A stretch of DNA of 64,000 nt from an uncultured Saprospiraceae bacterium (lineage in GTDB: Bacteria; Bacteroidota; Bacteroidia; Chitinophagales; Saprospiraceae): positions 1 to 64,000 of the forward strand of contig CALLMH010000045.1 in assembly GCA_938007965.1 (NCBI GenBank), in the 5' to 3' direction. How positions within the stretch are numbered: position 1 is the stretch's first letter; every line of letters starts with the position of its first letter. Shown here one piece after another: positions 1,135-60,165 of this stretch. A program made the translations under genes and the position numbers. A model generated the notes under the pieces. The model did not search any database. It had not been told where the DNA came from and was given only the letters and a program-made list of their open reading frames with translations.

Positions 1135-1179
1135 CAGCATAGTACAGGACGCATATAATTACTAGATATAGTATTCTTA
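1135..1179 (+). promoter_or_regulatory. Regulon box and -7 element for the PL28 lyase gene
   Basis: CAGCAT-AGTA-CAGGAC at 1135-1150, then exactly 21 nt, then TATTCTTA at 1172-1179. The ATG at 1196 follows 16 nt later, so the leader is very short. Same architecture as twelve other sites in the window. Confidence 0.8.
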
Positions 1180-1195
1180 CATAAATATACAAAAT

Positions 1196-2755
1196 ATGAA
1201 AAAAAATACGATTAATTATTTTTTAGTTTGTTGTTCAATGGTTCTTTCTCTTTATGCAACAGCTCAGGGTATAGCACCTGATGAAGATACGAATCCAGAT
1301 CTTACATGTCCTGCTTCGGGCGAATTCCAAAATGATGAAACTCGAGATGTAGATATACCCAATAAAGTTAATGTAGGAGCTGTAGATGATAGAACTTGTT
1401 ATTCGGATTACAGCGAAAGTATGGTTTATGGTACGACGTGGGGCGTTTACAATATAACACATAATTCTAATCATTGGGATTCACCTGGTACACTACAACC
1501 TAGAATAGAGCGCTCACTGAGCAGATCTAATGAGGCTGGAGTAGGAAGCTATGCACGATTTACGGGTACTTTGAGAATTCTTGAAGTCGGTGATACATCA
1601 GGAGAAAATAACGATGGAAGCTACTTTATGCAAACTAAAGGTAGACATACTGGCGGTGGAGGTGCTGCGGATCCGGCCATATGCCTATATTTAGCAATGC
1701 CTGTATATGGAGATGATGGGAATGGTAATCAGGTCCAAGTATCCTTTGATATTGTGAGAGAACAGATCAACTTTAGAGGAGGGTCGGGTGCTGACGGAAG
1801 AACTATCGTTTTCTTAAGAAATGTACTCAAAGATGAGTTGATAGATATTGAACTAGAAGTAGGTTTTAGACAAGATCCTGATAATCCAAATTTAAAAATA
1901 CATTATTCTGATGCGGTAATAGGGGGGGAAGTCTTTAATTGGAATATTCCTGAACCTGAGCGAGGCACTCAGTCAGGTATTCGATATGGTGCATATCGTG
2001 TGAAGGGAGGAAGAGCTCAAATGAGATGGGCTAATACTACATATGATAAAGTAGAAATTGTAGACGAATCAGGCCCTTTGCCTTGCAGTGATTGTGTGCT
2101 TTTGAGAAATGTAGAAACAGGCCAGTTCCTAACCACTGCAAATGGAAGTGCTGAGCCAGTCTCCATGTCAGATTCAGCGGAAGATAGGACTACTCATTGG
2201 CGGCTTGTAGAAAGTGGTGCTTTTATAAATATAGATAGTGACAGTGAAGAAGGGGGGACAGGTATATTACGAGCACCAGGTGCTGGTGGTCCTGGAGGAC
2301 CTTTTGTGATTTTAAGTACTCTAAAAGCTCCACCGGCGGCGGACTCAGATAAAACATGGACCGCACATTATGATGAAATGTCTGATACATATAGATTTGA
2401 ATCTAGAACAGCTGGCAGGTATCTATACCAAAATACTGATGGAACATTAACACATAGTGAAGCTCCTGATACGGATAATAGAAGCGTATGGAAAGTTATG
2501 CCAGTCGACGCAATATCATCAATAGAAAATACTGCATCCAATGTCGAGGCGTTGACCCTATATCCAAATCCAGTCCAGCAAAATGACTATCTGACTATCA
2601 AAAGCAATAGTAATCAAGGATACCAAATATTTAATATGCAAGGAATGCTTATCAAAAGCGGGACAGAAAAAGCTATTAAAATGGATCTGGAAAAAGGGAT
2701 CTATATCTTAAGACACATCAATGGTTCTAAAGCTGAAAGATTCATTGTCTATTAA
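1196..2755 (+). CDS. Secreted ulvan lyase, PL28-type, with trefoil-like domain and T9SS sorting tail
   Basis: 519 residues. Signal peptide about 1-24. Residues about 28-290 form a beta-jelly-roll domain that I recognise as PL28 ulvan lyase; conserved features include [11 protein letters not shown] (Lys148), DPAICLYLA and [12 protein letters not shown] (Tyr264/Tyr267), a Lys and Tyr arrangement consistent with a lyase active site. PL28 enzymes cut rhamnose-3-sulfate-(1,4)-uronate bonds by beta-elimination and leave unsaturated uronates, the substrate of the neighbouring GH105. Residues about 298-437 are a trefoil-like domain ([12 protein letters not shown], later RYLYQN) shared with the genes at 8906 and 36666. 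The last 70 residues are a type A T9SS sorting domain ([14 protein letters not shown] to ERFIVY), so the enzyme is exported and probably surface-anchored. A regulon box lies just upstream and a hairpin follows the stop. Confidence 0.82.
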
Positions 2756-2764
2756 ACATATAAT

Positions 2765-2953
2765 TTAATTGGTGGGGGTACTTCCCCACCAATTATTCTT
2801 AGGATTGAAGTTAGGAGATAATATATCCATACGTTGTTTTTCTAAATGAGGCATCTTTATTGATGCTACTTCATTGAGATGCGCTTTTTCTAAATCGGCA
2901 TTGTATAATGAGTCTTGTAATGGAATATAATTCTTTGAGATAGTAAAACTCAT
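2765..2953 (-). pseudogene. Short coding-like remnant of unknown origin
   Basis: A 62-codon frame between the PL28 gene and the sulfatase. Translation upstream of its ATG continues sensibly for ten codons (FPHQEVNDGH) to a stop at 2984-2986, so the first Met is probably not a real start. The sequence (ISKNYIPLQDSLY, MPHLEKQRMDIL, NFNPKNNWWG) reads like the tail of a larger protein, not like noise, but I cannot name the family. Its last codons are encoded by the terminator hairpin at 2767-2794. I see no signal peptide or promoter. It may be the 3' remnant of a deleted PUL enzyme, or a chance ORF. Confidence 0.3.
2767..2794. terminator. Hairpin after the PL28 gene
   Basis: AATTGGTGGGG (2767-2777) pairs perfectly with CCCCACCAATT (2784-2794) around a 6-nt loop, 11 nt after the lyase stop codon and between convergent units. 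It probably ends transcription rightward and perhaps leftward too. The T-tract is weak. Confidence 0.65.
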
Positions 2954-3026
2954 ATGCCCATCGTTAACCTCTTGGTGAGGAAATTAGGAGATTGGTAAGA
3001 CAATGTATTGAGTATGGATCATTTAT

Positions 3027-4778: not shown

Positions 4779-4879
4779 ATGTTTATGGTATTAAAATTAT
4801 TAATGGTTCAATATTTTGTACACGCAGCGGTATTACACGACCAATCAAATAAAAATCATTCTAAAAAAATATAGTGCTT

Positions 4880-6004: not shown

Positions 6005-6012
6005 TGTAATTG

Positions 6013-8506: not shown

Positions 8507-8551
8507 TAAAGTTATGATATAATGAAATAGTGTATATCCTGTACTGTCAGG
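8507..8551 (-). promoter_or_regulatory. Regulon box and -7 element for the GH3-GH105-sulfatase operon
   Basis: On the minus strand: CCTGAC-AGTA-CAGGAT (8551-8536), 21 nt, then TAACTTTA (8514-8507). The left half deviates from CAGnAT, but the right half, spacing and -7 element are intact. GH3 start lies 181 nt downstream. Confidence 0.72.
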
Positions 8552-8843: not shown

Positions 8844-8888
8844 CAGTATGGTACAGGATACTTATATTTTATGTATATTTTATATTGC
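8844..8888 (+). promoter_or_regulatory. Regulon box and -7 element for the second PL28-type gene
   Basis: CAGTAT-GGTA-CAGGAT at 8844-8859, 21 nt, TATATTGC at 8881-8888. A possible TTG start at 8885 overlaps this -7 element, so translation should begin at the ATG at 8906. Confidence 0.8.
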
Positions 8889-18002: not shown

Positions 18003-21000
18003 TTAAAATGAATTAATCTTTAATTTTATAGTATGCTTTCCAGGGGCGAGCCTAATCACATCAAAAGCAGAAGGCACTTTTTCTCCATTGTGAATAAAAT
18101 CTTTCTCGTCCAAATCATTTAAAGAAAATTCTGCCACCATATTGGCAGGTATTTCAATGGTATAAGTTTGTAAGCGTGGACCGTTAAATTTATACTTAGC
18201 TTTTATCGTTCCTAAAACAGTAGGTACTTCAATTTCACTTGATTTTAGATCACTCATTTGTGGTTTTATCGTCGCTACACTGAATCCAGGCGTTTTAGGT
18301 TTGATTCCCCATAATCCTCTCGGTATGACATTAGCGGGGACGGCGCCCCAAGCATGATTCCAATCTAGATTTATCTTATCTTTATAGCCCCATGCTTCTA
18401 GACTTATCGTAGAACCTTCTCTAATCATATTGTACCAGCTTCTCTCGGATGTGCTTGACAATAATTCCAAAGCGTAATCTGCCTCACCCGCATTATACAA
18501 TCCGTCCATTAAGAATTGAGCCCCATAAACGCTGCATGCCATTCCTCGTGACTTGACGTAATCCATCACTGATTCAAAATGCTCTTCAGGTACCAAACCG
18601 AATGCTAAAGGCATCATATTGGCATGTAAAGATGCGTGGTCAGTGCCAATTCCGTCCACATAAATGCCTCTTTCTTTATCAAACATCTGTTCGTTTACAG
18701 CTTTTTTAGCTTTAGCGGCTCTCAATTCGAAGTCTAATACTTCTTGTGTTTTGCCTAATATCTTTGCAAATTCTGCCATGATTTTCATGTTCTCATAGAA
18801 AAAAGCATTGATCACAGTACTATAAGGTTTAAAAACAAAACCATCACGTGCGCCTTTGTTGCCACTTCTCATAAAGTTAGCACTTGGCCAATCCACAATG
18901 TCGGTCAATGGTTTCTTGTAACCAGGTTCGAAACCAAGTTTGTACATGAACTCTTCTGTCACCTTGGTAGAAGTAATTAACCCGTCTTCATTGGACAATT
19001 CATATAGAGTTTTATGCTTTAATGGTTCGTAATATCGTTCTATCAACTCTGAATTGCCAGTATACATATAGTCAGCATATATGAGCAATGCCACATGCTG
19101 CTGCCATTCTGTAGGCCATGTCGGATTTTTCATAAAATATTCAATAGTTCGTCTTCCGATAGCAAACTCCCTATCTGTGGTGTAATGACTTAGCTGATTT
19201 AGATAAGCATCAGCTTCGTAAGGAATACGTTCGCGGTCGCCATCTACATACAAACCCGCAAAAGTCGTTGCCTTGATGGAGTACCTACACATATCCCAGA
19301 CTTGATTTAAGATATCATTGTCACTATCAAAACTACTTGCTGCATCATCCCAATATCCAGTATGTCTCAACTGTTCAAAATCTTCGGCTTCAAAAGTCGA
19401 TTTCGCTCCTTCTACTTCAGCATATCTGAAAGGCTGCAATCCTGGAAAACTTGCAGGTAAAGGGACTGCCTTACTTGGTCCCTTCATACGTTTATCTGGA
19501 ACTGGATTGATTTGAATCTGGTATTTTGTTTGCCCTGGCTTCACAACTGTCTTTATTTCCTGATATCGGATGTTACTTTTTTCTGGAGGTGTTCTATTCA
19601 CGTTACCTTGAGCATCGATCATCTCTCCAATTCTAAAAGTCAATGTATCAGGTTCTTTAGCCTCATAATTAAAATCTATAGTGGCAAATGCAGCCTTACC
19701 GAAATCCATAAAATATACATCTCCTCGTTTTTCGAATTTCACAGGGTTTACTTTAGTGACCAAAAATTTATTAGCCGTAGAGACCATACCGTTATTACTT
19801 TTGCCTGTGGTAAATTCTTGTGGTTTAGAATAATCTACCAACCGATTTTCGTCATCCCATATTCGTACTTTCCAGAAGTATGTCTTTCCGATAGATAGAG
19901 GGCTACCATTATACTCCACATTGGTTGATTTGTTAGTACGTACTTGTCCGCTATCCCATACATCTCCATTATTAGCATCGATAATTGCTTTGGAAGAGGC
20001 GACTAAGATTTGGTAAGCTGCTTGAAATTTTGATTCCATAGGTACAGCCCAGCCAAATTCTGGTTTCGTATCTAATACTTCTACTTCAGTTTCAGGAGAT
20101 CTGATTAATTCTACGGTAAGGTGAGTAGGTCCATTTCTATAAGCATTACTGTTTCTCTTGATGAGTTCGTCACATTTTGCACGAAGTTCTGCGGCTACTT
20201 TTTTGTATTTAGATTTTCCTATGAGATTATTAATTTCTTTTGGATCCTTTTTTAGATCGTATAATTCTTCAATAGATTTATCATTCACATATCTAAAGTA
20301 TTTCCATTTTTCAGTACGTACACCTTCACTAGGAGGTATTTCACTGAAGTCCCATATATGTTCAATTAGTATAGTATCCCGACCTATTGATTTGGATTCT
20401 TTATTTACAATTGGCATTAGACTTTTGCCTTGCCATGTTTTTGGTGCTGGAATACCTGCAAGATCTGCTATGGTAGAGGGCACATCAATATTCAGTGCCA
20501 TATCTTTTACATCTTGATGCTTATTTATTCTAGGGTCAAAAACGATCAGTGGTACTCGGATAGAATTATCGTACATCAGCCATTTTCCTGCCATTTGTCG
20601 TTCGCCTAGGAAGTAGCCATTATCACCCATGACGATGATGACAGTATTTTTATCTATTCCTTTTTCTTTTAACTTTTTTCGTATTTTTTTAATCTCTAAA
20701 TCAACTCCCGATATCATCCTGTAATATCCCTTTACACTGTGTTGATATTTTTCGGGATTATCATAACGCCATGTCCATCGCAATCTGTTAAATCCATCAC
20801 GCACGATTTTAGGCTGAGCTTCAAAATACTTATCGTCTCCAAGTTCGGGGCCTGGAATGGTAGTGTTACTTAGCAGATTGTCGGTAGTGCTTTGCCAAAA
20901 ATACTGGTCTTCTGCGGAGTCATGTGCATGAGGTGCGCTAAAACTCAGAGACAAGCAAAATGGTTTGTCACTAGAAGTATCATCAATAAAGTCTAATGCT

Positions 21001-21536
21001 TTTTGGCCAGTATACCTAGTCAGGTGAACGGTATCCTCTCCGATAGTTTTGTAATAATATCCTCTTTTATCTTTAAATCTATTATTTCTATCATAGGATT
21101 CATATACATCGAATTGTTTATCTAAATCTTGGTAGCGAACACCGTATTTTCCAAAAAAACCGGTTTGATATCCATTGTTTTTTAGTAAAGTAGGGTAGGA
21201 ATTCTCCATGTATTCCTCTCTTACATTCCCCGTTTGGAAATTAAAATTATGGGAACGTTCATGCAATCCTGTCAATATAGACGCTCTACTCGCTGCGCAG
21301 ATTGGAGTAGTGACAATAGCGCTTTGAAAATAGGTCCCTGATTTTGCCAGGTCATCCATTTCTGGAGTTTCTACAAATTTATTGCCTGCATACCCGATCG
21401 CATCATACCGTTGATCATCGGTTAGGATAAATATAATATTAGGTTTTTCGGCGTTCGATAAAGATGTTTGAGACCGACTAATATTAGAGAAGTAAAGTGT
21501 GATGAAGAGTATGAATAGAAACGTATTTTTTCTCAT
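18003..21536 (-). CDS. Bimodular S1 sulfatase - GH78 alpha-L-rhamnosidase
   Basis: 1177 residues from the ATG at 21536. A frame from 21599 exists, but that ATG lies inside the -7 element and the internal Met begins a proper signal peptide ([11 protein letters not shown] to SRSQ). Residues about 30-480 are a sulfatase: [14 protein letters not shown], formylglycine motif C-A-A-S-R (Cys80), [18 protein letters not shown]. Residues about 490-1177 are GH78: a fibronectin-like domain ([12 protein letters not shown]), the (alpha/alpha)6 core with [18 protein letters not shown] (catalytic Asp/Glu region), and the C-terminal beta-domain. Such a fusion could remove the sulfate and then the exposed rhamnose; a similar S1_25-GH78 enzyme is known in characterised ulvan loci. 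First gene of a four-gene operon with its own regulon promoter. The Ala in place of Pro in the motif is an accepted S1 variant. Confidence 0.9.
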
Positions 21537-21592
21537 AAAATTATTGATTAACAGAGTTCTATGGCTCTTTAGATTTTTAAAGAGGATTTCTG

Positions 21593-21637
21593 TAAACATA
21601 TATTTATCTACTTCAAATCCTATCCTGTACTATCCTG
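21593..21637 (-). promoter_or_regulatory. Regulon box and -7 element for the sulfatase-GH78 / lyase operon
   Basis: Minus strand: CAGGAT-AGTA-CAGGAT (21637-21622), a perfect 10-bp-period direct repeat, then 21 nt, then TATGTTTA (21600-21593). The chosen start at 21536 lies 56 nt downstream. Confidence 0.85.
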
Positions 21638-27259: not shown

Positions 27260-27304
27260 CAAGTTTACAAATTAGGTTGTAGACGACTATCCTGTACCGA
27301 CCTG
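27260..27304 (-). promoter_or_regulatory. Regulon box and -7 element for the SusCD operon
   Basis: Minus strand: CAGGTC-GGTA-CAGGAT (27304-27289), 21 nt, TAAACTTG (27267-27260). A third CAGG copy sits immediately upstream (27312-27309). SusC starts 54 nt downstream. Confidence 0.83.
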
Positions 27305-30048: not shown

Positions 30049-30093
30049 CAAAAATAATGCTTTTTACGTTCTTCATTATCCTGTCTTATCCTG
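30049..30093 (-). promoter_or_regulatory. Regulon box and -7 element for the sulfatase-lactonase operon
   Basis: Minus strand: CAGGAT-AAGA-CAGGAT (30093-30078), 21 nt, TATTTTTG (30056-30049), a perfect match to TAnnTTTG. Both half sites are CAGGAT, so this is one of the cleanest copies. Confidence 0.87.
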
Positions 30094-30421: not shown

Positions 30422-30466
30422 CATAATAGTACAGGATACCAATACTAGCTATATTTAATATTATTA
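30422..30466 (+). promoter_or_regulatory. Regulon box and -7 element for the giant T9SS protein
   Basis: CATAAT-AGTA-CAGGAT (30422-30437), 21 nt, TATTATTA (30459-30466). The left half is degenerate but the rest is intact. This site ties the giant protein and its PorP/SprF partner to the ulvan regulon. Confidence 0.75.
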
Positions 30467-30550: not shown

Positions 30551-33500
30551 ATGAAAAAAATTTACAGCTATAGAAGAGAAATTATTCTCTTGTTGAGTTT
30601 GATCGCTTTTAGTTATTCCGCTCAGTCTCAAGTCAGCATAACTTGGAGTGGGGCTGGAGATGGAACAACCTGGTCAGATGGTAACAATTGGAATGGAGGC
30701 GTAGTACCAGGTATTGGGCAGAATGCTGTATTTCAAGATTTTGATGCGACTGTTAATTTTACTACATCGCCTACTGTTGACATAATAGATGTTCGGGCAG
30801 GTAGAAATGTAACACTAAACGTTGGTGGTCAAACATTGAACATAGGCGCTCCAAATAAAAGTAACGTTGTTAAGGTAAATACAAATAGTATTCTTGAGAT
30901 AACCTCGGGAACGGTTAATGTTACAGCTGATCTTAATAGAGACGCTATTCAATTCAGAGGAGCGGGCGGTATCTTAAATATGGGTGCTGGATTATCCCTT
31001 AATGTTATAGGAAGAAAGGGGTTTGCGTCTAATTCTTCAACAAGCTCTGGGCAGATAAACAATTCTGGGGAGATTAACATATTAAATGTGACCAACAATG
31101 ATGGTATTTCACTGAATCCTAATACACAACTAACGCTTCTCAATGATTTCTGTGCGGTTATAAATTTGGGTAATAGTAAAATTAAAGGATTTACCTCTTC
31201 CGCTCCTTGGTCTAGTATTACAAACAATGGTTTGATAACTTACACTGGTACTGGTGCTGGAGGAGGGGTTACTGTAAATAATGGTAATCAAGCTACAAAT
31301 AATGGCTTTTATGATTATCCCAATGGCGCTAACTTTGCTACTGGAAATAATGGTAATCTTGGAATTGTAATTGATAACGGTGTAGATATAAATGAAGTTG
31401 TGGACGCAGATGGTAGTTGCATTATTGACTTAACTTCTGGTACTGAGGGAATGGTTGCGTACAGCTGGAATTCTGGTACTACCAACGATGCTGATGGTTC
31501 ATTGGATATATCAGGTGCGGGTTTACCTTCTTCGGGTGGTACGATTTCAGTCACGAGTTGTTTCAATATTTCAATAAGTGTTATCAACATAAACGATTCG
31601 GATTGTGATGGTGTCCCAATGGGCGAAGACTGCGACGACAATGATGCTTCCAATACGAACTCAAATGTAAACGATGCAGATTGTGATGGTATACCGACGA
31701 GCGAAGATTGTGATGATAATGATCCGTCCAATACCAATTCTATTCTCATCGACGCAGATTGTGATGGCGTACCAACGTCCGAAGATTGCGACGATAATGA
31801 TGCTACCAACACGAACACTAATATAAATGACGCCGATTGTGATGGCGTACCGACCTCCGAAGATTGTGACGACAATGATCCGATGAATACCAATTCGAAT
31901 GTAAATGACGCAGACTGTGATGGCATACCAACCTCCGAAGATTGCGACGACAATGATCCGCTGAATACCAATTCGAATGTGAACGACGCAGATTGCGATG
32001 GAGTACCAACGTCCGAAGATTGCGACGATAATGATCCGCTGAATACCAATTCCAATGTGAACGATGCAGATTGCGATGGCGTACCAACGTCCGAAGATTG
32101 CGACGACAATGATCCATTCAACACATTAGGAAGTACCTGTCTTATCGGCCCTACAACTACAGCACCATGTGATGATGGTAATCCTTGTACCATCAACGAT
32201 ATGATTACGACACTTGATTGTGACGGTAGTATTTGTGTCCCTTGTAGCGGTGACCCAGCTCCATGTGGTACTGATGGCACTTGCGAGTTGGTTGTAAGTT
32301 GTGATGATGGCGACCCTTGCACTATTAATGATGTAGAGACGATCCTGCAGTCAGACGGTAGTGTCTGTATTCCTTGTGCAGGAATCGAACAAGATTGTGA
32401 AACTGGAAGTACCACGATCCAACCTTGTGACGACAATGATCCGTGCACGATTAATGACCAAGAAGAGATTTTAAATTGTGATGGTTCCATATGCGTTCCT
32501 TGTGCGGGTGTAGTGCAAGATTGTAGTAATGGTAGCATATCCATTGTTGATTGTGATGATGGTGATCCAAGCACTGTAGATGACGTCGAGATCATTTTAG
32601 ATTGTGATGGTAGTATTTGTATTCCTTGCATGGGAGTGAGTGACGATTGCGCCGTTGGCGAAACTATTACGCAGAGCTGTAATGATGGTAATCCTTGTAC
32701 CGTCCAAGACGAAGAAGTTGTGTTGGTTAGTGATGGGTCTATATGTGTGCCGTGTGCAGGCATACAGGCTCCTTGCGGTACAGATGATAGCTGTGAATTA
32801 ACCGTTGGCTGTGATGATGGAGACCCTTGTACTTTTAACGATCAAGAGACCATACTCCTGTCAGATAATACTGTCTGTGTGCCTTGTGCAGGCACACCAG
32901 AGAGCTGTGATGAAGGCAGTACAACTATACAGTCTTGTGATGATGGTAATCCGTGCACAGTTGATGATTTGGAAGAGATTCTAGATTGTGATGGTTCTAT
33001 ATGCGTTCCATGTCAAGGAATATTACAAGATTGTACTGATGGTCCTACTACTGTACAGCCATGTGACGATGGTAATCCTAACACTGTAGATGATGTAGAG
33101 ACTATTCTCGATTGCGATGGATCTATTTGTACTCCGTGTGCAGGAGTCGATGGCGATTGTAATACGGGAGCCACTTCTGTACAGAACTGTGATGATGGGG
33201 ATCCATGTACTGTTGATGATATAGAGACTATTCTAGATAGTAATGGTACGATCTGCATCCCTTGTCAAGGCACATTACAGGACTGTAGTGACGGTCCTAC
33301 ATCTGTTCAACCGTGTAATGATGGTAACCCGAATACTATCAATGATATGGAAACTATTTTGACTTGTGATGGCTCGATTTGTATTCCATGTGCGGGAACG
33401 GCGGTAGATTGTGATACGGGTACGACATCAGTACAGCCATGTGATGACAACAATCCATGTACGATAAATGATGAGGAGACCATCCTTGATAGTGATGGAA

Positions 33501-35242
33501 CCGTCTGTATACCGTGTGTAGGAACAGTCGTCGATTGTAACACAGCTGGTGCGACCACTACACAAATGTGTGATGATGGCGATCCGAATACTGTCAATGA
33601 TATGGAAACTATTTTGACGTGTGATGGCTCGATTTGTATTCCATGTAGTGGAACACCTGCAGATTGTGATATGGGAGCTACTTCGGTACAGCCATGTGAT
33701 GACAACAATCCGTGTACTATAAATGATGAGGAAACGGTATTAGATAGTGACGGTACGATCTGTGTACCATGTGCAGGAACAGTCTTCGATTGTAATACTC
33801 CAGGAGCGACCACTACACAGATGTGTGATGATGGAGATCCAAATACTATAAATGATATGGAAACGATATTGACCTGTGATGGCTCGATCTGCGTTCCATG
33901 TTCAGGAACAGCGGTAGATTGTGATACGGGAACGACATCGGTACAGCCATGTGATGACAACAATCCATGTACTATAAATGATGAGGAAACGGTATTAGAT
34001 AGTGATGGTACGATCTGTGTACCATGTGCAGGAACAGTCGTTGATTGTAATACTGCAGGAGCGACCACTACACAAATGTGTGATGATGGCGATCCGAATA
34101 CTATCAATGATATGGAAACGATATTGACGTGTGATGGCTCGATCTGTATTCCATGTAGTGGAACACCTTCAGATTGTGATACGGGTATGACATCAGTACA
34201 GCCATGTGACGATAATAATCCATGTACTATAAATGATGAAGAGACCATACTAGATAGTGATGGAACTGTCTGTGTACCATGTGCAGGAACAGTCGTCGAT
34301 TGTAACACAGCTGGTGCGACCACTACACAAATGTGTGATGATGGCGACCCGAATACTATCAATGATATGGAAACGATTTTGACCTGTGATGGCTCGATCT
34401 GCGTTCCATGTTCAGGAACAGCGGTAGATTGTGATATGGGAGCTACTTCGGTACAGCCATGTGATGACAACAATCCGTGTACTATAAATGATGAGGAAAC
34501 GGTATTAGATAGTGACGGTACGATCTGTGTACCGTGTGCAGGAACACTTGTTGATTGCGATGCGGCTATGACTTCGGTGCAACCATGCGATGATGGTGAT
34601 CCATGTACGATTAATGATATACAAGTTGTCCTTAATTGCGATGGTAGCGTTTGCGAGCCATGTATGGGAGAAGATATTATTTTCTTAGTAGATTTTGCAG
34701 AAGATAATGAATATGAGGTTGCAGTTGGGGAGTCAGTAACTGGAAACCTACTACTTAATGATGATTTAGATAATATAAATGACCCTATTGTTCAACTAAC
34801 TACTAATCCTATTTTTGGAGAAATGTCTATAAATCAAGATGGCTCCTTTGAGTATACTCCAGAAATAGATTTTTCTGAGACAGAAGAATTTGATTATATT
34901 GTTTGTTCTACTGATTGTGCGGAAGAATGTGCTTCGGCTACAGTAGTCATTAATATAATTGATGATACTGAATTATTTGTTCCAGATGCAATTAGCCCGA
35001 ATGGAGATGGAATCAATGATACTTGGATTATCCCAGGTTTATTGGATAGCGAACGACGTAAATTGACCGTGATAAATAGATGGGGAGATGTTGTCTACGA
35101 GGCTGATCCGTATAATAATGATTGGGATGGATCCAATAGTAACAGCGGAAAACCTTTGCCAGAAGGGACTTATTATTACCTGTTAAGGCATGATTTGGTG
35201 CCGGGAGCATTAGCTCAGGGAACAATTACAATTATTAGATAA
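30551..35242 (+). CDS. Giant repeat-rich secreted protein with type B T9SS (CHU_C / gliding-type) C-terminal domain
   Basis: 1563 residues. Signal peptide about 1-27 (SYSAQSQ). Residues about 30-345 are beta-rich (TTWSDGNNWNGGVVPG), resembling adhesin beta-solenoids. Residues about 347-525 contain seven 26-residue repeats with NDADCDGVPTSEDCDDNDP, Asp-rich and thrombospondin-3-like, likely calcium-binding. Residues about 530-1375 contain twenty repeats of about 42 residues with conserved Cys (PCDDGNPCTINDxETIL, CDGSICVPCxGT). A tandem-95-type Ig domain follows (VTGNLLLNDDLDN, GSFEYTPEIDF), then a type B sorting domain (FVPDAISPNGDGINDTW, NRWGDVVYE, LPEGTYYYLL). Type B proteins are exported by T9SS with a PorP/SprF partner, here the next gene. 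A cell-surface adhesin or scaffold is likely. Function in ulvan use is inferred from its regulon promoter. Confidence 0.85.
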   Translation: MKKIYSYRREIILLLSLIAFSYSAQSQVSITWSGAGDGTTWSDGNNWNGGVVPGIGQNAVFQDFDATVNFTTSPTVDIIDVRAGRNVTLNVGGQTLNIGAPNKSNVVKVNTNSILEITSGTVNVTADLNRDAIQFRGAGGILNMGAGLSLNVIGRKGFASNSSTSSGQINNSGEINILNVTNNDGISLNPNTQLTLLNDFCAVINLGNSKIKGFTSSAPWSSITNNGLITYTGTGAGGGVTVNNGNQATNNGFYDYPNGANFATGNNGNLGIVIDNGVDINEVVDADGSCIIDLTSGTEGMVAYSWNSGTTNDADGSLDISGAGLPSSGGTISVTSCFNISISVININDSDCDGVPMGEDCDDNDASNTNSNVNDADCDGIPTSEDCDDNDPSNTNSILIDADCDGVPTSEDCDDNDATNTNTNINDADCDGVPTSEDCDDNDPMNTNSNVNDADCDGIPTSEDCDDNDPLNTNSNVNDADCDGVPTSEDCDDNDPLNTNSNVNDADCDGVPTSEDCDDNDPFNTLGSTCLIGPTTTAPCDDGNPCTINDMITTLDCDGSICVPCSGDPAPCGTDGTCELVVSCDDGDPCTINDVETILQSDGSVCIPCAGIEQDCETGSTTIQPCDDNDPCTINDQEEILNCDGSICVPCAGVVQDCSNGSISIVDCDDGDPSTVDDVEIILDCDGSICIPCMGVSDDCAVGETITQSCNDGNPCTVQDEEVVLVSDGSICVPCAGIQAPCGTDDSCELTVGCDDGDPCTFNDQETILLSDNTVCVPCAGTPESCDEGSTTIQSCDDGNPCTVDDLEEILDCDGSICVPCQGILQDCTDGPTTVQPCDDGNPNTVDDVETILDCDGSICTPCAGVDGDCNTGATSVQNCDDGDPCTVDDIETILDSNGTICIPCQGTLQDCSDGPTSVQPCNDGNPNTINDMETILTCDGSICIPCAGTAVDCDTGTTSVQPCDDNNPCTINDEETILDSDGTVCIPCVGTVVDCNTAGATTTQMCDDGDPNTVNDMETILTCDGSICIPCSGTPADCDMGATSVQPCDDNNPCTINDEETVLDSDGTICVPCAGTVFDCNTPGATTTQMCDDGDPNTINDMETILTCDGSICVPCSGTAVDCDTGTTSVQPCDDNNPCTINDEETVLDSDGTICVPCAGTVVDCNTAGATTTQMCDDGDPNTINDMETILTCDGSICIPCSGTPSDCDTGMTSVQPCDDNNPCTINDEETILDSDGTVCVPCAGTVVDCNTAGATTTQMCDDGDPNTINDMETILTCDGSICVPCSGTAVDCDMGATSVQPCDDNNPCTINDEETVLDSDGTICVPCAGTLVDCDAAMTSVQPCDDGDPCTINDIQVVLNCDGSVCEPCMGEDIIFLVDFAEDNEYEVAVGESVTGNLLLNDDLDNINDPIVQLTTNPIFGEMSINQDGSFEYTPEIDFSETEEFDYIVCSTDCAEECASATVVINIIDDTELFVPDAISPNGDGINDTWIIPGLLDSERRKLTVINRWGDVVYEADPYNNDWDGSNSNSGKPLPEGTYYYLLRHDLVPGALAQGTITIIR
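31590..32130 (+). repeat. Seven in-frame 78-bp tandem repeats (Asp-rich, calcium-binding type)
   Basis: The unit encodes NDADCDGVPTSEDCDDNDP plus NTNSNV. The middle copies are nearly identical in DNA, which indicates recent unit duplication. Such arrays are prone to copy-number change between strains. Confidence 0.88.
32140..34670 (+). repeat. Twenty in-frame Cys-rich repeats of about 126 bp, with a higher-order double unit
   Basis: Each unit carries CDDGxPCTINDxETIL, DG(S/T)(I/V)C(V/I)PC and a short linker ending in DC. From about 33360 to 34560 the repeats form five alternating double units of about 250 bp that are close to identical in DNA, so the array has grown by duplicating pairs. Earlier units are more diverged. 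Confidence 0.88.
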
Positions 35243-35253
35243 AATAGAATTTT

Positions 35254-36153
35254 ATGAAAAAAATAAGCTTATGTTTATATCTTATGATTTTGATTTTACC
35301 ATTTTTAAGTGGTCAACAGTTGCCCCTATTACAACAACAGATTGAACATCGAAATCCAGCTTTTTTGCCTGCAAATTTTCAAAAGTATGATTATACTACA
35401 CAAGCGTCTTTAGGATATAATTACCAATGGGTCGGATTGGAAGGTGCTCCTCGCACTATTTCAGGCGATTTTACCAACTGGGATGATGACTATAGTTTGT
35501 TGTATGGAGGAAATATTCTTCATGATGAGACAGGCCCCACTCAATTTACTAGCGTTTCTGGAAAGATTGGGTATGGAATACAACTCACAAGAGAATGGTT
35601 TTTGACCGGTGCTATAAATGGAGGGTTGGTTCACTATCGAATTGAAGGGGACCAATTAAATTTTTTAGATCCTGGAGACTTTACGGAAGTGGGATCTAGT
35701 AAAATTTATCCTGACATCTCTTTAGGGAGTATGCTGTATTTTAAAGATAAATACTACGTGGGTTTTTCAATTCCTCAGCTTTTCGGATTGAATCTGGGAT
35801 TTGACGGACAAAACGGAGATTATAATATTCACCGAGATAGACATTACTACGGAGTTGCTGGAGTGCGTTTTGATTTACTTATGGATTCTTGGTTGGATAT
35901 TTCGTCTGAAGTACAATATCTACCTCAAGTGCCTGTACTGTTTAATGTTAATTTAGTACACGATTATAGAGGAATCTATTGGATTACCACAAGCTACTCG
36001 ACTGCAAATCGTATGAGGCTTGGTGGTGGAATTTTCCATGATATTGGAATAAATAGATTAAGCTTTGGTTATGTCTTTTCTAATTATTTTCAAAGTTATG
36101 GGCCTAGTTTTGGGAGTTCACACGAATTACAGATAGCTTACAGTTGGAATTAA
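35254..36153 (+). CDS. PorP/SprF-family T9SS outer-membrane protein
   Basis: 299 residues with a signal peptide (about 1-21, LPFLSGQ). The pattern is that of PorP/SprF: QQLPLLQQQIEHRNPAFLPANF near the start (the usual N-P-A-x-x motif), alternating beta-strands typical of a barrel (KIGYGIQLTREWFLTGAING, YPDISLGSMLYFKDKYYVGFSIPQLF), and a final SFGYVFSNYF then HELQIAYSW. SprF-like proteins act as dedicated partners for T9SS export and attachment of type B CTD proteins such as SprB. It begins 11 nt after the giant gene, so the two form one export and attachment pair under the regulon box. It is a local partner, not a core T9SS gene. Confidence 0.88.
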   Translation: MKKISLCLYLMILILPFLSGQQLPLLQQQIEHRNPAFLPANFQKYDYTTQASLGYNYQWVGLEGAPRTISGDFTNWDDDYSLLYGGNILHDETGPTQFTSVSGKIGYGIQLTREWFLTGAINGGLVHYRIEGDQLNFLDPGDFTEVGSSKIYPDISLGSMLYFKDKYYVGFSIPQLFGLNLGFDGQNGDYNIHRDRHYYGVAGVRFDLLMDSWLDISSEVQYLPQVPVLFNVNLVHDYRGIYWITTSYSTANRMRLGGGIFHDIGINRLSFGYVFSNYFQSYGPSFGSSHELQIAYSWN

Positions 36154-37691: not shown

Positions 37692-37736
37692 TAAAAATAG
37701 GGTGCTTTAATTCTGAAAGTATCCTGTACTGTGCTG
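37692..37736 (-). promoter_or_regulatory. Regulon box and -7 element for the stand-alone trefoil protein
   Basis: Minus strand: CAGCAC-AGTA-CAGGAT (37736-37721), 21 nt, TATTTTTA (37699-37692). The start codon is 42 nt downstream. Confidence 0.83.
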
Positions 37737-47465: not shown

Positions 47466-47863
47466 AATTATTTTTCAGGTTGTGGATTTTCATTTAATAA
47501 GATCATAGCGAATTACTAAATATGGTATGGCTAATTATCCAATTAGGATATCAAAATTTCTAGATCTATTTAATACGATTCATTTGAATCTCCTTTTGTG
47601 GAAGTAAAATTAAAATAAATGACTCCTTAAAAATGATTATTTAATACGGGGATTCTGTCCTGTACTTTCCTGTGAAGGAGATAACCTATCTTTCGTACAT
47701 TCCTACGGGTAAGTTGTAGAAGTATCCTCAGCAAGACCAGCTTTATTCTTGGGTGGGTAGACAGAATGTAGAATTACAAGAGTGAAAAAAACTTATTTCA
47801 GCTCTTATTTCTACCTTAGCATGATTACCGAAAGATGAAACAGACTCAAAAAATAACTATAAA
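47466..47863. other. Divergent control region between GH2 and the Gfo/Idh/MocA gene
   Basis: 398 bp. It holds one regulon promoter facing the GH2 gene (47628-47672) and a leader of about 160 nt. I find no box facing the rightward oxidoreductase gene at 47864, and nothing else that I can name. Confidence 0.55.
47628..47672 (-). promoter_or_regulatory. Regulon box and -7 element for the GH2 operon
   Basis: Minus strand: CAGGAA-AGTA-CAGGAC (47672-47657), 21 nt, CATTTTTA (47635-47628). The -7 has C in place of the first T. The start is 162 nt downstream. Confidence 0.75.
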
Positions 47864-48913
47864 ATGCTAACATTCGGAATTATTGGTGCCGGGATGATTG
47901 CTAATTTTCATGCCCAAGCCATCCAAGCTATGAAAGGTGGAAAATTGGGAGCAATCTATGCTAGGAATCCACAGAAGGCTTTGGACTTTGGTTTAGTATA
48001 CAACTGTACTCCTTATTCTGATCTGAATGATTTATTGGCAGATGAATCTATCGATATTGTTACCATTGCTACACCTTCTGGTACACATCTGGAACCAGTC
48101 ATTGCTGCTGCCAAAGCGGGAAAGCATATTATCTGCGAAAAACCATTAGAAATAACACCTGATAGAATTGTGGAAATGATTCAAGTTAGTAAAGAGAATA
48201 AAGTGGTGTTGGCAGGAATATTTAATCGTCGTTTCAATCCAGCGGTAGAAGCTTTAAAAAAAGCAACAGACCAAGGTCGATTTGGTCAATTAACACTCTG
48301 CGACGCTTATGTCAAATGGTATAGATCGCAAGAGTACTACGATTCTGGAGCTTGGCGAGGTACCTGGAAATTAGACGGAGGTGGTGCTCTAATGAACCAA
48401 TCCATACATACGATTGATCAATTGATCTATCTAGCTGGTGATATCAAAAGACTATCTGCTTCTATTACCTGTCTGACGCATGATAGGATAGAAGTAGAAG
48501 ATACCGCAGTAGCAATATTAGAGTTTGAAAATGGAGCCCGTGGCGTTATTCAAGGATCGACTTCTTGTTGGTCTAGTAATGGGCATCCAGCGGAAGTTCA
48601 TCTTTGCGGTAGCGAAGGTTCTGTGTTTATGACTGATGAATCATTTCGAGTTTGGGATTTTAAAACTCACAATATTGATGATGATTTCATTAAAGAGAAT
48701 TTGATGAGCGATACCAATCAGGGGATAGGCGCCAATGATCCTTCAGACATTGATTTTTACGGTCATTTACGTAATTTTGAGGATGTGGTAGAAGCAATAA
48801 AGACGGGAAGAGAGCCATTAATAACAGGAGAAGAAGCATTGAAAGCGGTCCATGTTATAGATGCTATCTACCGTAGTGCACAACAGAATGGAGCTTGGAT
48901 AACTTTAGAGTAA
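47864..48913 (+). CDS. Gfo/Idh/MocA-family NAD(P)-dependent sugar oxidoreductase (cytoplasmic)
   Basis: 349 residues, no signal peptide. Rossmann start LTFGIIGAGMIANFHAQAIQAM, then SIDIVTIATPSGTHLEPVIAAAKAGKHIICEKPLE with the EKP motif (catalytic-type Lys), and a C-terminal alpha/beta domain including GGGALMNQSIHTIDQLIYLAG (the usual H-x-x-x-D of this family). Members oxidise a sugar hydroxyl, commonly at C3, or reduce a ketosugar. The second Gfo/Idh/MocA gene at 55998 is predicted to be exported, so the two may act in different compartments. It converges with the GH39-like gene, separated by only 19 bp. No regulon box precedes it, so its regulation may differ. Confidence 0.88.
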   Translation: MLTFGIIGAGMIANFHAQAIQAMKGGKLGAIYARNPQKALDFGLVYNCTPYSDLNDLLADESIDIVTIATPSGTHLEPVIAAAKAGKHIICEKPLEITPDRIVEMIQVSKENKVVLAGIFNRRFNPAVEALKKATDQGRFGQLTLCDAYVKWYRSQEYYDSGAWRGTWKLDGGGALMNQSIHTIDQLIYLAGDIKRLSASITCLTHDRIEVEDTAVAILEFENGARGVIQGSTSCWSSNGHPAEVHLCGSEGSVFMTDESFRVWDFKTHNIDDDFIKENLMSDTNQGIGANDPSDIDFYGHLRNFEDVVEAIKTGREPLITGEEALKAVHVIDAIYRSAQQNGAWITLE

Positions 48914-50598: not shown

Positions 50599-50643
50599 TA
50601 AATTTAAGGGACTCTCATGATATTGGCATCCTGTAGTTACATG
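50599..50643 (-). promoter_or_regulatory. Regulon box and -7 element for the GH39-like gene
   Basis: Minus strand: CATGTA-ACTA-CAGGAT (50643-50628), 21 nt, TAAATTTA (50606-50599). The start codon is 28 nt downstream. It is back-to-back with the GH78 promoter, 30 bp away. Confidence 0.78.
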
Positions 50644-50673: not shown

Positions 50674-50718
50674 CAGTACAGTACAGGATGTTCCTAATCT
50701 CAAAGCTTATTAACTTAC
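50674..50718 (+). promoter_or_regulatory. Regulon box and -7 element for the GH78 gene
   Basis: CAGTAC-AGTA-CAGGAT (50674-50689), 21 nt, TAACTTAC (50711-50718). An ATG at 50688 falls inside the box and cannot be the true start; 50739 or 50748 is. Confidence 0.83.
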
Positions 50719-53489: not shown

Positions 53490-53525
53490 AATGAAGTATT
53501 TTAAATACTGAAAAAAATTATTGAA

Positions 53526-54431: not shown

Positions 54432-54451
54432 TGAAAGTATGTTTTTGATAA

Positions 54452-54475: not shown

Positions 54476-54496
54476 AACCCATCTTATGTTTAGAAG

Positions 54497-54541
54497 CACC
54501 ATAGTACAGGATGGAGAAAAGTAAATACCTTTTTATTTTGA
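54497..54541 (+). promoter_or_regulatory. Regulon box and -7 element for the DUF1080 operon
   Basis: CACCAT-AGTA-CAGGAT (54497-54512), 21 nt, TATTTTGA (54534-54541). The start codon is 35 nt downstream. Confidence 0.83.
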
Positions 54542-54576
54542 GGAAATTTTTATAACAGATTTTACTAAAATAGCTT

Positions 54577-55956: not shown

Positions 55957-55997
55957 ACGAACAGGCCTACAATCATCAAATCTTTAAAAGAACAAGA

Positions 55998-57332: not shown

Positions 57333-57399
57333 TATCATTGACTCAGTTATTTACTAATTGAAATTTAGAGATATACAAATAATCCAGAAAACTCAAGTC

Positions 57400-58068: not shown

Positions 58069-58131
58069 TATAGCTCTAATGCACTTAGCTATAATTTTGA
58101 ATTAATGTGCTCATAGCATAAAAATAACCAC

Positions 58132-60048
58132 ATGGAACGAAGACATTTTCTACAATCAAGTACCGCTGCTAGTTTAGGATTGTTATTTCCGTTTATGGGC
58201 TGTCAGCAAGTATCTACTGAATCAGCTACTGAGCAAACGGTTTATCAAGAATTAGTATATTCACTATTAAAAGATTGGTGTGATGCCATGCTAAAATTGC
58301 AAATTAATAGGCCCGAAGACGACGAAGTTCATGGTGCATTAGACTGTCCAGCATGTAATAAAATTCACGGGCGATGTATGGATGCCGTATACCCATTTAT
58401 GTACATGGCTGAGAAAACAGGTGATTCAAAGTATATGAACGCAGCGATAGACGTGATGGAATGGTCAAAAAATGTGACGAGACCTGATGGTAGCTGGACG
58501 GTAATTCCAAATCCAAAATCATGGAGAGGTATTTCGGTATTTGGGGCCATAGCATTGGGAGAAGCACTACATTATCATGGACAAATCTTGCCAGCTGATA
58601 TCAAGGAAAAATGGATGGATAGATTATCCAGAGTAGGAGACTATTTATACAAGAACTTTGATATGACTTTTACAAATATCAATTATGGCTTTACTGTGGT
58701 ATATGCATTAAATCTATTGGGCAGGATATTAGAAAACGAAACATATCTTACTAGAAGTAGAACACTCGCTAAAGAGATTAAAAATTGGTTTACGACACCA
58801 CATCATTTACTTTATGGAGAAGCAAAACCAAGTAATAAAAAAAGTGATAAAGGACTTTTTGGCGTAGACTTAGGATATAATGTAGAGGAATCATTAAACG
58901 GCGTGGTGCAGTATGCGCTTATAGAGAAAGATGAAGAGCTACTTCAGTTATTGACGAAAGTCCTTGAAGGGCATTTGAATTTCATGTTACCAGATGGAGG
59001 CTGGGATAATAGTTGGGGGACACGACAATACAAGTGGAGCTATTGGGGTAGTCGTACTACCGATGGCTGCCAGATTGCTTTTGGTATGATGGCGGATAGA
59101 AATCCTGCATTCGGAACAGCCGCCTATCTGAGTACAGAATTATTAGCGCGCTGTACATCCGATGGTCTTATCCATGGAGGATTACATTATCAGACCCATG
59201 GTGTCAAACCTTGCGTGCATCATACATTTACCCATGCTAAACCATTGACTACATTACTGCATGAGTACGACCGAACAGCTAAAATCAATAAGAACGCCAC
59301 TTTGCCGATAGTCGACGCGGATGGTATTCAGCATTTTCCAGAGATAGACGTGTGGCTGGCAGCCAAGGGGGATTTTAGAGCTACTATTTCGACATATGAT
59401 TTTATTTACAAAGAAAAAGCACAACAGGGGAGTGGCGGCTCCATATGTGTACTATATCATATGAAGGTAGGGCCTTTATTTACCGCGAGTATGGCTAAAT
59501 ATTTATTAGTAGAAAAAAATAATCAGCAACCCAATCCAGGCGAAGAAGAGGTAGTGCTGACACCACGGATAGAAATGTTCGAGGATGGAGAATGGTACAC
59601 TAATATCTATGATCTGAAAGCAATGGTCGAAACCGAAGAGGATGAAAAGTCTTGCCATTTTAAGGTGGATGCTAGTTTGGTCAATGAAAACAGGCAATCA
59701 CCGAATGGAGAAAACTCAAAGTATCAGTTTGATTATTTATTGGATGCCGAAAAAGTAGAAATCAGAGCTCAACAAAGAAATGCAGCTAAAAAGGTATCAA
59801 CTGCGAGATTAGTCTTACCAATAATCTCTCCTACAGGTGAACCAGTCAAGCAAATATCTCCCAATCGGATTGAAATCAGTAAACCAGGAGGGTTGCTGAT
59901 CGTGGAGGCCAATGTGTCATTACAAATAAAAGAAATGGAAAAAGAGCGTGCATTTAATATGGTGCCAGGAGTAGAAGCGGTACCAATTTTTGCATCTTTT
60001 GAAAATATTAAAGTAGATGAAATAATATGCACGATAAGGGTTGTATAG
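58132..60048 (+). CDS. Tat-type lipoprotein, putative (alpha/alpha) toroid enzyme of unknown family
   Basis: 638 residues. The N-terminus combines a twin-arginine motif (MERRHFLQSSTAA) with a lipobox-like FMGC (Cys24), so it may be a Tat-exported lipoprotein. The N-terminal 400 residues look like a six-hairpin toroid glycosidase or lyase: YPFMYMAEKTGDSKYMNAAIDVMEWSK, RVGDYLYKNFDMTFTNINYGF, and LPDGGWDNSWGTRQYKWSYWGSRTTDGC. Near residues 65-80 is a conserved-looking LDCPACNKIHGRCMDAVYP, three Cys and a His that could bind a metal. The C-terminal third is beta-rich. I do not recognise the family with confidence. It is the last gene of the DUF1080 operon and so probably acts on the same glycan. 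Confidence 0.6.
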   Translation: MERRHFLQSSTAASLGLLFPFMGCQQVSTESATEQTVYQELVYSLLKDWCDAMLKLQINRPEDDEVHGALDCPACNKIHGRCMDAVYPFMYMAEKTGDSKYMNAAIDVMEWSKNVTRPDGSWTVIPNPKSWRGISVFGAIALGEALHYHGQILPADIKEKWMDRLSRVGDYLYKNFDMTFTNINYGFTVVYALNLLGRILENETYLTRSRTLAKEIKNWFTTPHHLLYGEAKPSNKKSDKGLFGVDLGYNVEESLNGVVQYALIEKDEELLQLLTKVLEGHLNFMLPDGGWDNSWGTRQYKWSYWGSRTTDGCQIAFGMMADRNPAFGTAAYLSTELLARCTSDGLIHGGLHYQTHGVKPCVHHTFTHAKPLTTLLHEYDRTAKINKNATLPIVDADGIQHFPEIDVWLAAKGDFRATISTYDFIYKEKAQQGSGGSICVLYHMKVGPLFTASMAKYLLVEKNNQQPNPGEEEVVLTPRIEMFEDGEWYTNIYDLKAMVETEEDEKSCHFKVDASLVNENRQSPNGENSKYQFDYLLDAEKVEIRAQQRNAAKKVSTARLVLPIISPTGEPVKQISPNRIEISKPGGLLIVEANVSLQIKEMEKERAFNMVPGVEAVPIFASFENIKVDEIICTIRVV

Positions 60049-60120
60049 ATTGATTGAGTAGGTCTATATTTTGATACAATTCCATTTATTTTTTCAACAT
60101 TGACAATATGATTCTTAAAA

Positions 60121-60165
60121 CCATACAGTACAGGATAGAGTATTTTTTTAAAGAATCTATATTAG
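60121..60165 (+). promoter_or_regulatory. Regulon box and -7 element for the rhamnose catabolic operon
   Basis: CCATAC-AGTA-CAGGAT (60121-60136), 21 nt, TATATTAG (60158-60165). The start codon is 29 nt downstream. It links cytoplasmic rhamnose catabolism to the same regulon as the ulvan enzymes. Confidence 0.8.

What the first reader, a model, noticed from the sequence alone, without database searches (positions are those of the whole stretch)
1135..60165. Thirteen promoters share one box at a fixed 21-nt distance from the -7 element
I aligned every copy base by base. The pattern is CAnnAn-(A/G)GTA-CAGGA(T/C), then exactly 21 nt, then a TAnnTTTG-like octamer. Sites (box start to -7 end): 1135-1179 (+), 8507-8551 (-), 8844-8888 (+), 21593-21637 (-), 27260-27304 (-), 30049-30093 (-), 30422-30466 (+), 37692-37736 (-), 47628-47672 (-), 50599-50643 (-), 50674-50718 (+), 54497-54541 (+), 60121-60165 (+). 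Two half sites, CAGnAT and CAGGAT, repeat with a 10-bp period and take the place of the -33 element. That suggests an activator bound next to the sigma factor as tandem monomers or a head-to-tail dimer, for example an AraC-type or hybrid two-component regulator. The regulator is not in the window.
Basis: seen in the sequence. Interest (0 to 1): 0.9.

Follow-up and report, generated by a model that had tools for sequence, protein, structure and literature searches.

The report
One switch box runs seaweed-sugar genes
A short repeated DNA box sits at one exact distance from the start region of nearly every gene set in a bacterial locus for digesting the green-seaweed sugar ulvan, and the protein that most likely reads it is a sugar-sensing regulator of an unexpected family, encoded just outside the window and found beside the same box in many other bacteria of the phylum.

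Summary
In detail: all 13 boxes exist, each with a TAnnTTTG-like octamer 21 nt downstream. A matrix from the window finds three more sites on contig C40. All 16 lie beside ulvan or rhamnose genes; the genome's next hit has E 0.645.

The box is a 10-bp direct repeat (CAGNAYRGTA-CAGGAY), not a palindrome, and lies where the -33 element would be.

The suggested AraC/hybrid two-component regulator is not supported. The best candidate is a GntR winged-helix + LacI-type sugar-binding protein (AraR-like architecture) on C40, divergent from a box. Tests outside the training data: a box lies beside its orthologue in 7 of 8 further family loci and in 63 of the best 80 loci in named Bacteroidota, against 0-2 hits in shuffled controls. 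Rhamnose-catabolism genes lie within 3 kb in 59 of 80. Seven of 18 distant-paralogue loci keep the period and spacing with other half-sites. Four promoters carry 3-4 tandem half-sites, the last pair in register. Against: 9 of 14 box-positive family genomes lack a close orthologue.

Most likely a rhamnose-responsive, head-to-tail-bound activator standing in for the -33 element; binding, activation and ligand are untested. New variant of a known kind.

The parts
1135..1179 (+). Box 1135-1150, -7 octamer 1172-1179; upstream of PL28 ulvan lyase 1196-2755
8507..8551 (-). Box 8536-8551, -7 8507-8514; upstream of GH3, GH88, sulfatase (8358-3027)
8844..8888 (+). Box 8844-8859, -7 8881-8888; upstream of second PL28 ulvan lyase (ORF listed from 8885; true start should be downstream of the -7)
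21593..21637 (-). Box 21622-21637, -7 21593-21600; upstream of fused sulfatase-GH78, two BNR_4 proteins, heparinase-like protein (ORFs 21599-11128; first start should be downstream of the -7)
27260..27304 (-). Box 27289-27304, -7 27260-27267; upstream of SusC, SusD, weakly fasciclin-like protein
30049..30093 (-). Box 30078-30093 (CAGGATAAGACAGGAT, GTA before the upstream half-site), -7 30049-30056; upstream of sulfatase and lactonase
30422..30466 (+). Box 30422-30437, -7 30459-30466; upstream of 1563-aa T9SS type B cargo and PorP/SprF partner
37692..37736 (-). Box 37721-37736, -7 37692-37699; upstream of ulvan-lyase-type beta-trefoil T9SS protein
47628..47672 (-). Box 47657-47672, -7 47628-47635; upstream of GH2, sulfatase, GH106, BNR_4 protein
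50599..50643 (-). Box 50628-50643 (weakest of the 16 sites, E 0.022), -7 50599-50606; upstream of GH39
50674..50718 (+). Box 50674-50689, -7 50711-50718; upstream of GH78 (ORF listed from 50688, true start should be downstream) and a TIM-barrel protein
54497..54541 (+). Box 54497-54512, -7 54534-54541; upstream of 3-keto-disaccharide hydrolase, Gfo/Idh, GH115-C, 638-aa protein without Pfam match at 0.001
60121..60165 (+). Box 60121-60136, -7 60158-60165; upstream of rhamnulose-P aldolase/dehydrogenase, L-rhamnose isomerase and, beyond the window, ORFs that look like a kinase, an LldD-type enzyme and a transporter (read by eye)

Best explanation
The 13 boxes, plus three on contig C40, are operators of one regulon for ulvan breakdown and L-rhamnose catabolism. 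The regulator is most likely the chimeric GntR (winged helix) + LacI-type sugar-binding protein encoded on contig C40 (C40:71862-72947, minus strand), divergent from a box. Two of its DNA-binding domains bind head to tail on two CAGGAY half-sites one helical turn apart. The downstream half-site lies where the -33 element would be. In the presence of L-rhamnose or a close metabolite, the bound protein stands in for the -33 element and recruits sigma/RNA polymerase to the TAnnTTTG -7 element, which needs the exact 21-nt spacing. Shown by sequence: box, repeat symmetry, fixed spacing, confinement to the locus, neighbourhood of regulator gene and box across Bacteroidota. Inferred: physical binding, activation rather than repression, the ligand, the geometry of the protein on DNA.
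For: Sites and spacing. Genome scan: 16 sites with E at most 0.022, all on C40/C45, next hit E 0.645 (the model was built from these 16). The three C40 sites were found by the window-only matrix, out of sample, beside PL28, GH3, sulfatase and GH78. Regulator gene divergent from a box on C40; 2 GntR-domain matches in the genome at E 0.001, this the only one on C40/C45. Family: 15 matches of 48% identity or more; of the 12 given loci, 11 have a box beside the gene, the twelfth (L098) being cut off by a contig end; 4 of the 11 had contributed sites to the matrix, so the out-of-sample count is 7 of 8; the other 3 of the 15 also lie beside boxes but had been found through them. Named genomes, matrix from the own genome only: 63 of 80 loci have a box within 500 bp of the gene, against 0-2 hits per Markov control set; octamer with at most 1 mismatch at offset 37 in 57 of 82 distinct hits, 8 at offset 42 (5-bp-shifted readings of the same boxes), 0 or 1 at every other offset from 28 to 47. 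10-bp direct repeat: 0 of 2000 permutations; inverted symmetry reached by 857 of 2000. Arrays of 3-4 half-sites in four loci, last pair in register with a -7. Rhamnulose-P aldolase/dehydrogenase gene within the up-to-3-kb flanks in 53 of 80 loci, any of three rha genes in 59 of 80. Five paralogue loci with CRGAAY half-sites keep the spacing. LacI-type sensor fold; AraR effector domain 3tb6 at Z 21.3, rmsd 3.4, 246 aligned, tied with many LacI chains. Phylum sample without the own genome: both genomes with two or more box hits carry the regulator, against 11 of 295 overall (55/43365, about 0.0013, by hand and after the fact).
Against: No binding, expression or transcript-start data. GntR-family operators are usually palindromes (PMC4494728 passages) and the family is mostly known for repressors (recalled); a GntR-family repressor of alginate use is reported for Zobellia (title only, in the reference lists seen; the paper is not held). 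Of 14 box-positive family genomes only 5 carry an orthologue of 48% or more; the other 9 plus G003 were searched with the alignment, and 3 of 10 had any full match, none with a convincing box beside it. Among the 9, G226 (2 strong sites) and G208 (3 sites) are the most telling; both are fragmented and 90-92% complete. 17 of 80 named loci lack a box within 500 bp (6 of these have one further off, 11 none at the threshold). 11 of 18 distant-paralogue loci gave no convincing repeat. In one locus (L078) a LacI-family gene, not GntR, faces a box. 18 of the 63 are Flavobacterium loci with nearly one box whose octamer place has 2 mismatches, and L124 and L130 have the contig lengths of G142 and G229 loci already seen. 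In the phylum sample 9 of 11 carriers besides the own genome had no box at E 0.001 under the strict filters, and box-positive G445 had no regulator at E 1e-90. Regulators other than GntR and AraC were not searched for in the own genome.
Confidence: 0.76

Rival explanations
1. The GntR/LacI chimera binds the box but represses: the box blocks the -33 region until rhamnose releases the protein.
For: GntR and LacI families are mainly repressors (recalled); AraR of B. subtilis, the nearest named architecture, is called a repressor in the PDB; a GntR-family repressor of alginate catabolism is reported for Zobellia (title only). The box covers the -33 region.
Against: The spacing to the -7 is fixed in 13 of 13 window sites and peaks sharply in relatives, which an occluding repressor does not need. 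The box letters leave no TTTG -33 element for unaided transcription. In the four arrays extra half-sites extend upstream, away from the promoter.
Confidence: 0.16
2. An AraC-type or hybrid two-component regulator located elsewhere binds the box.
For: Such regulators control polysaccharide loci in Bacteroides through direct repeats. AraC-family CgrA acts positively on a carrageenan cluster in Zobellia.
Against: Published period 21 bp, here 10. None of the 7 AraC-domain matches is on C40/C45. The box lies beside the GntR gene across families.
Confidence: 0.03
3. The box is the upstream recognition element of an alternative (ECF-type) sigma factor, not a regulator site.
For: Fixed distance to a downstream element.
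Against: 21 nt plus an internal 10-bp repeat does not fit a usual -35/-10 pair, and the downstream element resembles the TAnnTTTG of the main sigma factor (both recalled). Arrays of 3-4 half-sites would be unexplained.
Confidence: 0.02
4. The GntR protein regulates only part of the set, and the other boxes are read by a second, related regulator.
For: Some relatives carry two GntR/LacI paralogues: in G142 and G229 one by the rha operon and one by SusC, in G038 one by the rha operon and one by GH3.
Against: The window's own genome has one such gene (1 match at E 1e-50; 2 GntR-domain matches in all) and 16 boxes of one pattern.
Confidence: 0.03

Closest known systems
AraR subfamily of the GntR family (B. 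subtilis AraR)
   Same: GntR winged helix at the N-terminus (PF00392; PDB 4egy matched at 2.5e-06) and LacI/GalR-type sugar-binding domain at the C-terminus (PF13377; 3tb6 Z 21.3); control of sugar genes (PMC4494728 passages).
   Different: Direct-repeat box where the family's usual operator is a palindrome; a place and spacing typical of a class II activator; rhamnose/ulvan instead of arabinose; Bacteroidota instead of Firmicutes. Sequence match to AraR weak.
HTCS/AraC regulators of Bacteroides polysaccharide loci
   Same: Direct-repeat binding sites upstream of SusCD and CAZyme operons (PMC3878776, passages).
   Different: Published period averages 21 bp, here 10; no AraC-domain match on the two contigs.
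DeoR-family RhaR of Chloroflexus and others
   Same: Rhamnose regulon, direct repeats with 10-11-bp periodicity; a tandem of four sites in C. aurantiacus (PMC3870299, passages).
   Different: Unrelated protein family.
GntR-family exceptions with direct repeats (FarR, NagQ, NanR; MocR type)
   Same: GntR winged helix with direct-repeat motifs (PMC4494728, passages).
   Different: Other effector domains; a fixed place relative to the -7 is not mentioned in the passages seen.
GntR-family repressor of alginate catabolism in Zobellia galactanivorans (Dudek et al. 2020)
   Same: GntR-family regulator of an algal polysaccharide pathway in Bacteroidota (title only, seen in reference lists).
   Different: Called a repressor; substrate alginate. 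Its domain architecture and operator could not be checked (paper not held).

Membership tests
GntR family, AraR-type (chimeric) architecture | N-terminal GntR winged helix-turn-helix | tested here: met
   PF00392 E 3.9e-09, 36.5 bits over cut-off 27
GntR family, AraR-type (chimeric) architecture | C-terminal LacI/GalR-type sugar-binding domain | tested here: met
   PF13377 30 bits over cut-off 26.5; AlphaFold model pLDDT 90.7; 3tb6 AraR effector domain Z 21.3, tied with many LacI proteins
GntR family, AraR-type (chimeric) architecture | Palindromic operator with GT/AC half-sites | tested here: not met
   10-bp direct repeat, no inverted symmetry beyond chance in 48 sites, if the box is its operator. 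Usual, not strictly defining; exceptions known (PMC4494728)
GntR family, AraR-type (chimeric) architecture | Repression relieved by a sugar ligand | not testable with these tools
   Promoter geometry argues for activation; no expression data
AraC / hybrid two-component regulator | Direct repeat with 21-bp period | tested here: not met
   Period 10 bp; 21 bp from PMC3878776 and PMC3870299 passages
AraC / hybrid two-component regulator | AraC-domain gene linked to the regulon | tested here: not met
   7 matches of PF12833 in the genome, none on C40 or C45
Class II activator-dependent Bacteroidota promoter | Site overlaps the -33 region at one fixed distance from the -7 | tested here: met
   21 nt in 13 of 13 window sites; peak at offset 37 in relatives. 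The -33/-7 consensus is recalled
Class II activator-dependent Bacteroidota promoter | Transcription start just after the -7 and dependence on the activator | not testable with these tools
   No RNA data or mutants
DeoR-type RhaR | DeoR-family regulator | not tested
   The candidate is GntR/LacI type; no DeoR search was made in the genome

The most novel reading that the evidence does not exclude
GntR/LacI chimeras form a Bacteroidota-wide class of head-to-tail-bound activators that replace the -33 element. The frame (10-bp repeat, 21 nt to the -7) is constant, while half-site specificity diverges between paralogues (CAGGAY, CRGAAY, TATGAAA), giving parallel sugar regulons that can be read from genomes.
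Probability: 0.5. Interest if true: 0.75.

Novelty: new variant of a known kind. Interest (0 to 1): 0.62.

Why it matters
The papers searched named no regulator for ulvan genes in Bacteroidota and no GntR-type rhamnose regulator there. This gives a candidate protein, a readable operator and a fixed promoter frame, so ulvan and rhamnose regulons could be predicted from sequence across many Bacteroidota. It also makes one question testable: how a GntR-type protein might bind a direct repeat and activate. The compact box could serve as a sugar-inducible promoter part.

Tried and rejected
Palindrome reading of the box: rejected. In that test a 5-bp shift is the second-best direct repeat (-0.04 against +6.27 for 10 bp), so a 5-bp sub-pattern may exist; not followed. 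Regulator downstream on C45: the rest of the contig was read as translated ORFs by eye only; one Lrp/AsnC-like ORF, no other regulator recognised. A third upstream half-site in the window's sites: no conservation upstream of the box; arrays were found in 4 of the 80 named loci and in none of the family stretches scanned. Half-sites of 11 of 18 distant-paralogue loci: not found. The TATGAAA repeat rests on two loci of one genus and could be chance plus kinship. A box beside the GntR genes of G220, G087 and G263 (L198-L200): none convincing. Specificity residue: position 71 is E/D/K in 13 CAGGAY proteins and V in 5 CRGAAY ones, but it is also V in L100, L106 and L113, where no CRGAAY box was found, and E in the TATGAAA proteins and in seven others without a CAGGAY box; suggestive only. 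NCBIfam: no model reached its cut-off for the regulator. Literature: the listings showed no GntR-type rhamnose or ulvan regulator in Bacteroidota; a mention inside unread texts, subscription papers or RegPrecise is not excluded. Passages only were seen of PMC3878776, PMC3870299, PMC4494728, PMC5698469, PMC12125979, PMC9296495 and PMC12323373; the other papers only as search listings; PMC7641319 is not held. B. theta FucR and ManR logos are figures and were not seen. The VIA-align list bears mainly on model residues 88-349; the winged helix alone was not searched by structure.


Full report
The observation. The 13 sites were extracted base by base and all match the description. GTACAGGAY occurs 12 times in the window against 0.58 expected, and no shuffle of 100 reached 12. 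A matrix from the 13 sites scores them at 30.3-42.7 bits; ten Markov windows peak at 13.8 bits. Reading the ORF list with the Pfam results, 30 of the 31 ORFs that I took as genes lie downstream of a box in the same direction, reading short gaps as operons. They include two PL28 ulvan lyases, sulfatases, GH78, GH106, GH3, GH88, GH2, GH39, SusC/SusD, T9SS cargo, and a rhamnulose-phosphate aldolase/dehydrogenase (TIGR02632, over its cut-off) and a protein closest to L-rhamnose isomerase models (TIGR02629, below its cut-off). This is an ulvan utilisation locus joined to rhamnose catabolism.

Genome-wide. The window is positions 1-64000 of contig C45 (86,444 bases) of a 4.19-Mb genome in 113 contigs. 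The window-only matrix found three new sites on contig C40 at 36.3, 29.6 and 30.1 bits, beside a PL28, a GH3, a sulfatase and a GH78. A sequence-only model of the 16 sites then found the same 16 at E 0.022 or less; the next hit has E 0.645 (13.3 bits against 17.9 for the weakest of the 16). The first look of that tool scored 150 of 5487 candidates, so weak sites may be missed.

What the box is. 48 distinct sites (16 own, 32 of 38 hits from relatives) were tested for symmetry. A 10-bp direct repeat is the strongest: +6.27, with 0 of 2000 column permutations equal to it; a 5-bp shift is next at -0.04; the best inverted centre is matched by 857 of 2000. The consensus is CAGNAYRGTA-CAGGAYR, positions 10-15 of it being C, A, G, G, A in 48 of 48 and T or C in 48 of 48. 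Four loci, from two Maribacter, an Arenibacter and a Zobellia, carry three or four half-sites at exact 10-bp steps; shuffled loci gave none. In all four the last pair is in register with a TAnnTTTG-like octamer. That is the expected picture for protein units bound head to tail.

Who reads it. On C40 a gene for a 361-aa protein (349 aa from the first ATG; C40:71862-72947, minus strand; locus L010:11862-12947) faces a box divergently. It has a GntR winged helix and a LacI-type sugar-binding domain. The genome has two GntR-domain matches at E 0.001; this is the only one on C40 or C45, and none of its seven AraC-domain matches is on either contig. Other regulator families were not searched for. 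The AlphaFold model (pLDDT 90.7) has a LacI/periplasmic-binding-protein fold over residues 88-349, with AraR's effector domain 3tb6 among many tied LacI matches (Z 21.3, rmsd 3.4, 246 aligned).

Tests outside the training set. In 298 genomes of the family, 14 have box hits at E 0.01, the strongest relatives with 11 and 7 sites, many upstream of the same kinds of genes. The family is probably Saprospiraceae: two of its contigs have the lengths of contigs from MAGs so named. A box-only scan of 20 relative stretches gave 38 distinct hits; the octamer sits at offset 37 in 29, the next best offset having 8. The regulator was then searched by protein: 15 matches had 48% identity or more, and 12 of them became loci. 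Eleven of these 12 have a box beside the gene; the twelfth, L098, is cut off by a contig end. Four of the 11 (L088, L089, L093, L095) had given sites to the matrix used there, so the out-of-sample count is 7 of 8; the two weakest of the 7 score 15.0 and 12.7 bits, and one of them has its octamer one base further on. A scan of named genomes gave 568 relatives, of which the best 80 were kept. With the matrix from the own genome alone, 63 of 80 have a box within 500 bp of the gene; order-1 Markov versions of the same regions gave 0-2 hits per set in ten sets. In 82 distinct hits the octamer (at most one mismatch) is at offset 37 in 57; the 8 at offset 42 are 5-bp-shifted readings of overlapping boxes; every other offset from 28 to 47 has 0 or 1. 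Eighteen of the 63 are Flavobacterium loci with nearly one box, whose octamer place has two mismatches, and L124 and L130 have the contig lengths of G142 and G229 loci, so the independent number is smaller. Six of the 17 without a near box have one further off, eleven have none at the threshold. The aldolase/dehydrogenase gene lies within the up-to-3-kb flanks in 53 of 80, any of three rha genes in 59.

Specificity seems to change with the protein. Among 18 loci of paralogues, mostly at 34-44% identity, five have CRGAAY half-sites with the same spacing (L104, L109, L111, L115, L116), two of one genus (L112, L117) have a perfect TATGAAA repeat, and 11 gave nothing convincing. Thirteen columns of the DNA-binding region separate 13 CAGGAY from 5 CRGAAY proteins; one, position 71 in the recognition-helix segment, is E/D/K against V. 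Against a simple code: L100, L106 and L113 also have V but no CRGAAY box was found, and the TATGAAA proteins have E. Kinship confounds all of this.

Results against. Of 14 box-positive family genomes only 5 carry an orthologue of 48% or more. The other nine, and G003 of the own genus, were searched with the alignment: three of ten had a full-length match, none with a convincing box beside it. G226 (two strong sites) and G208 (three sites) lack the regulator at E 1e-10; both are fragmented and 90-92% complete. In a phylum sample of 296, four genomes had box hits at E 0.001 and 12 the regulator at E 1e-90, three shared including the own genome. Of the 11 other carriers 9 had no box under those strict filters, although one of them, G009, has a box beside the gene by matrix. 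Both genomes with two or more box hits apart from the own one do carry it. In one locus a LacI gene faces a box. A GntR-family repressor of alginate use is reported for Zobellia (title only).

Mechanism. With the octamer as the -7, the downstream half-site falls at about -38 to -33, where the main sigma factor's -33 element should be (consensus recalled, arithmetic mine). A repressor does not need a distance fixed to the base; a protein touching sigma does. I therefore favour an activator standing in for the -33 element, and L-rhamnose or a metabolite as ligand because of the rha neighbours. None of this has been tested at the bench.

Known or new. The regulator has the architecture of AraR (PMC4494728, passages), but the box is a direct repeat. 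The rhamnose regulators in PMC3870299 (passages) belong to the AraC, DeoR and LacI families, and the GntR proteins of B. thetaiotaomicron listed in PMC3878776 (passages) are FucR and ManR. The listings of nine searches of the paper library showed no GntR-type rhamnose or ulvan regulator in Bacteroidota. I rate it a new variant of a known kind.

Noticed in passing
window 8885, 21599, 50688: Listed ORF starts overlap the box or -7 element, so the true start codons should lie further downstream.
   Followed up: partly
window 47864-48913: A Gfo/Idh oxidoreductase gene is the only one of the 31 ORFs taken as genes without a box in front of its unit.
   Followed up: no
window 18003-21599: Sulfatase and GH78 rhamnosidase domains fused in one 1198-aa ORF.
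   Followed up: no
window 30551-36153: A 1563-aa T9SS type B cargo and a PorP/SprF partner sit behind a box inside the ulvan locus.
   Followed up: no
L134 6941, L141 6108, L146 6429, L177 5119: Tandem arrays of 3-4 ten-bp half-sites in Maribacter, Arenibacter and Zobellia, the last pair in register with a -7.
   Followed up: partly
L112 2573, L117 2576: Paralogue loci of one genus with a TATGAAA 10-bp repeat at the same distance from a -7-like octamer.
   Followed up: partly
L011 620-2530 (end of C40): A GH78 ORF runs off the end of C40; C40 and C45 may adjoin in the genome, not proven.
   Followed up: no
L074 5190-7970: In G142 a weaker box precedes ORFs with CCG and LUD/LutB_C domains, like lactate-utilisation genes, which would fit lactaldehyde-derived lactate.
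   Followed up: no
48-site set: A 5-bp shift is the second-best direct repeat of the box, hinting at a finer sub-pattern (YAG/CAG every 5 bp).
   Followed up: no
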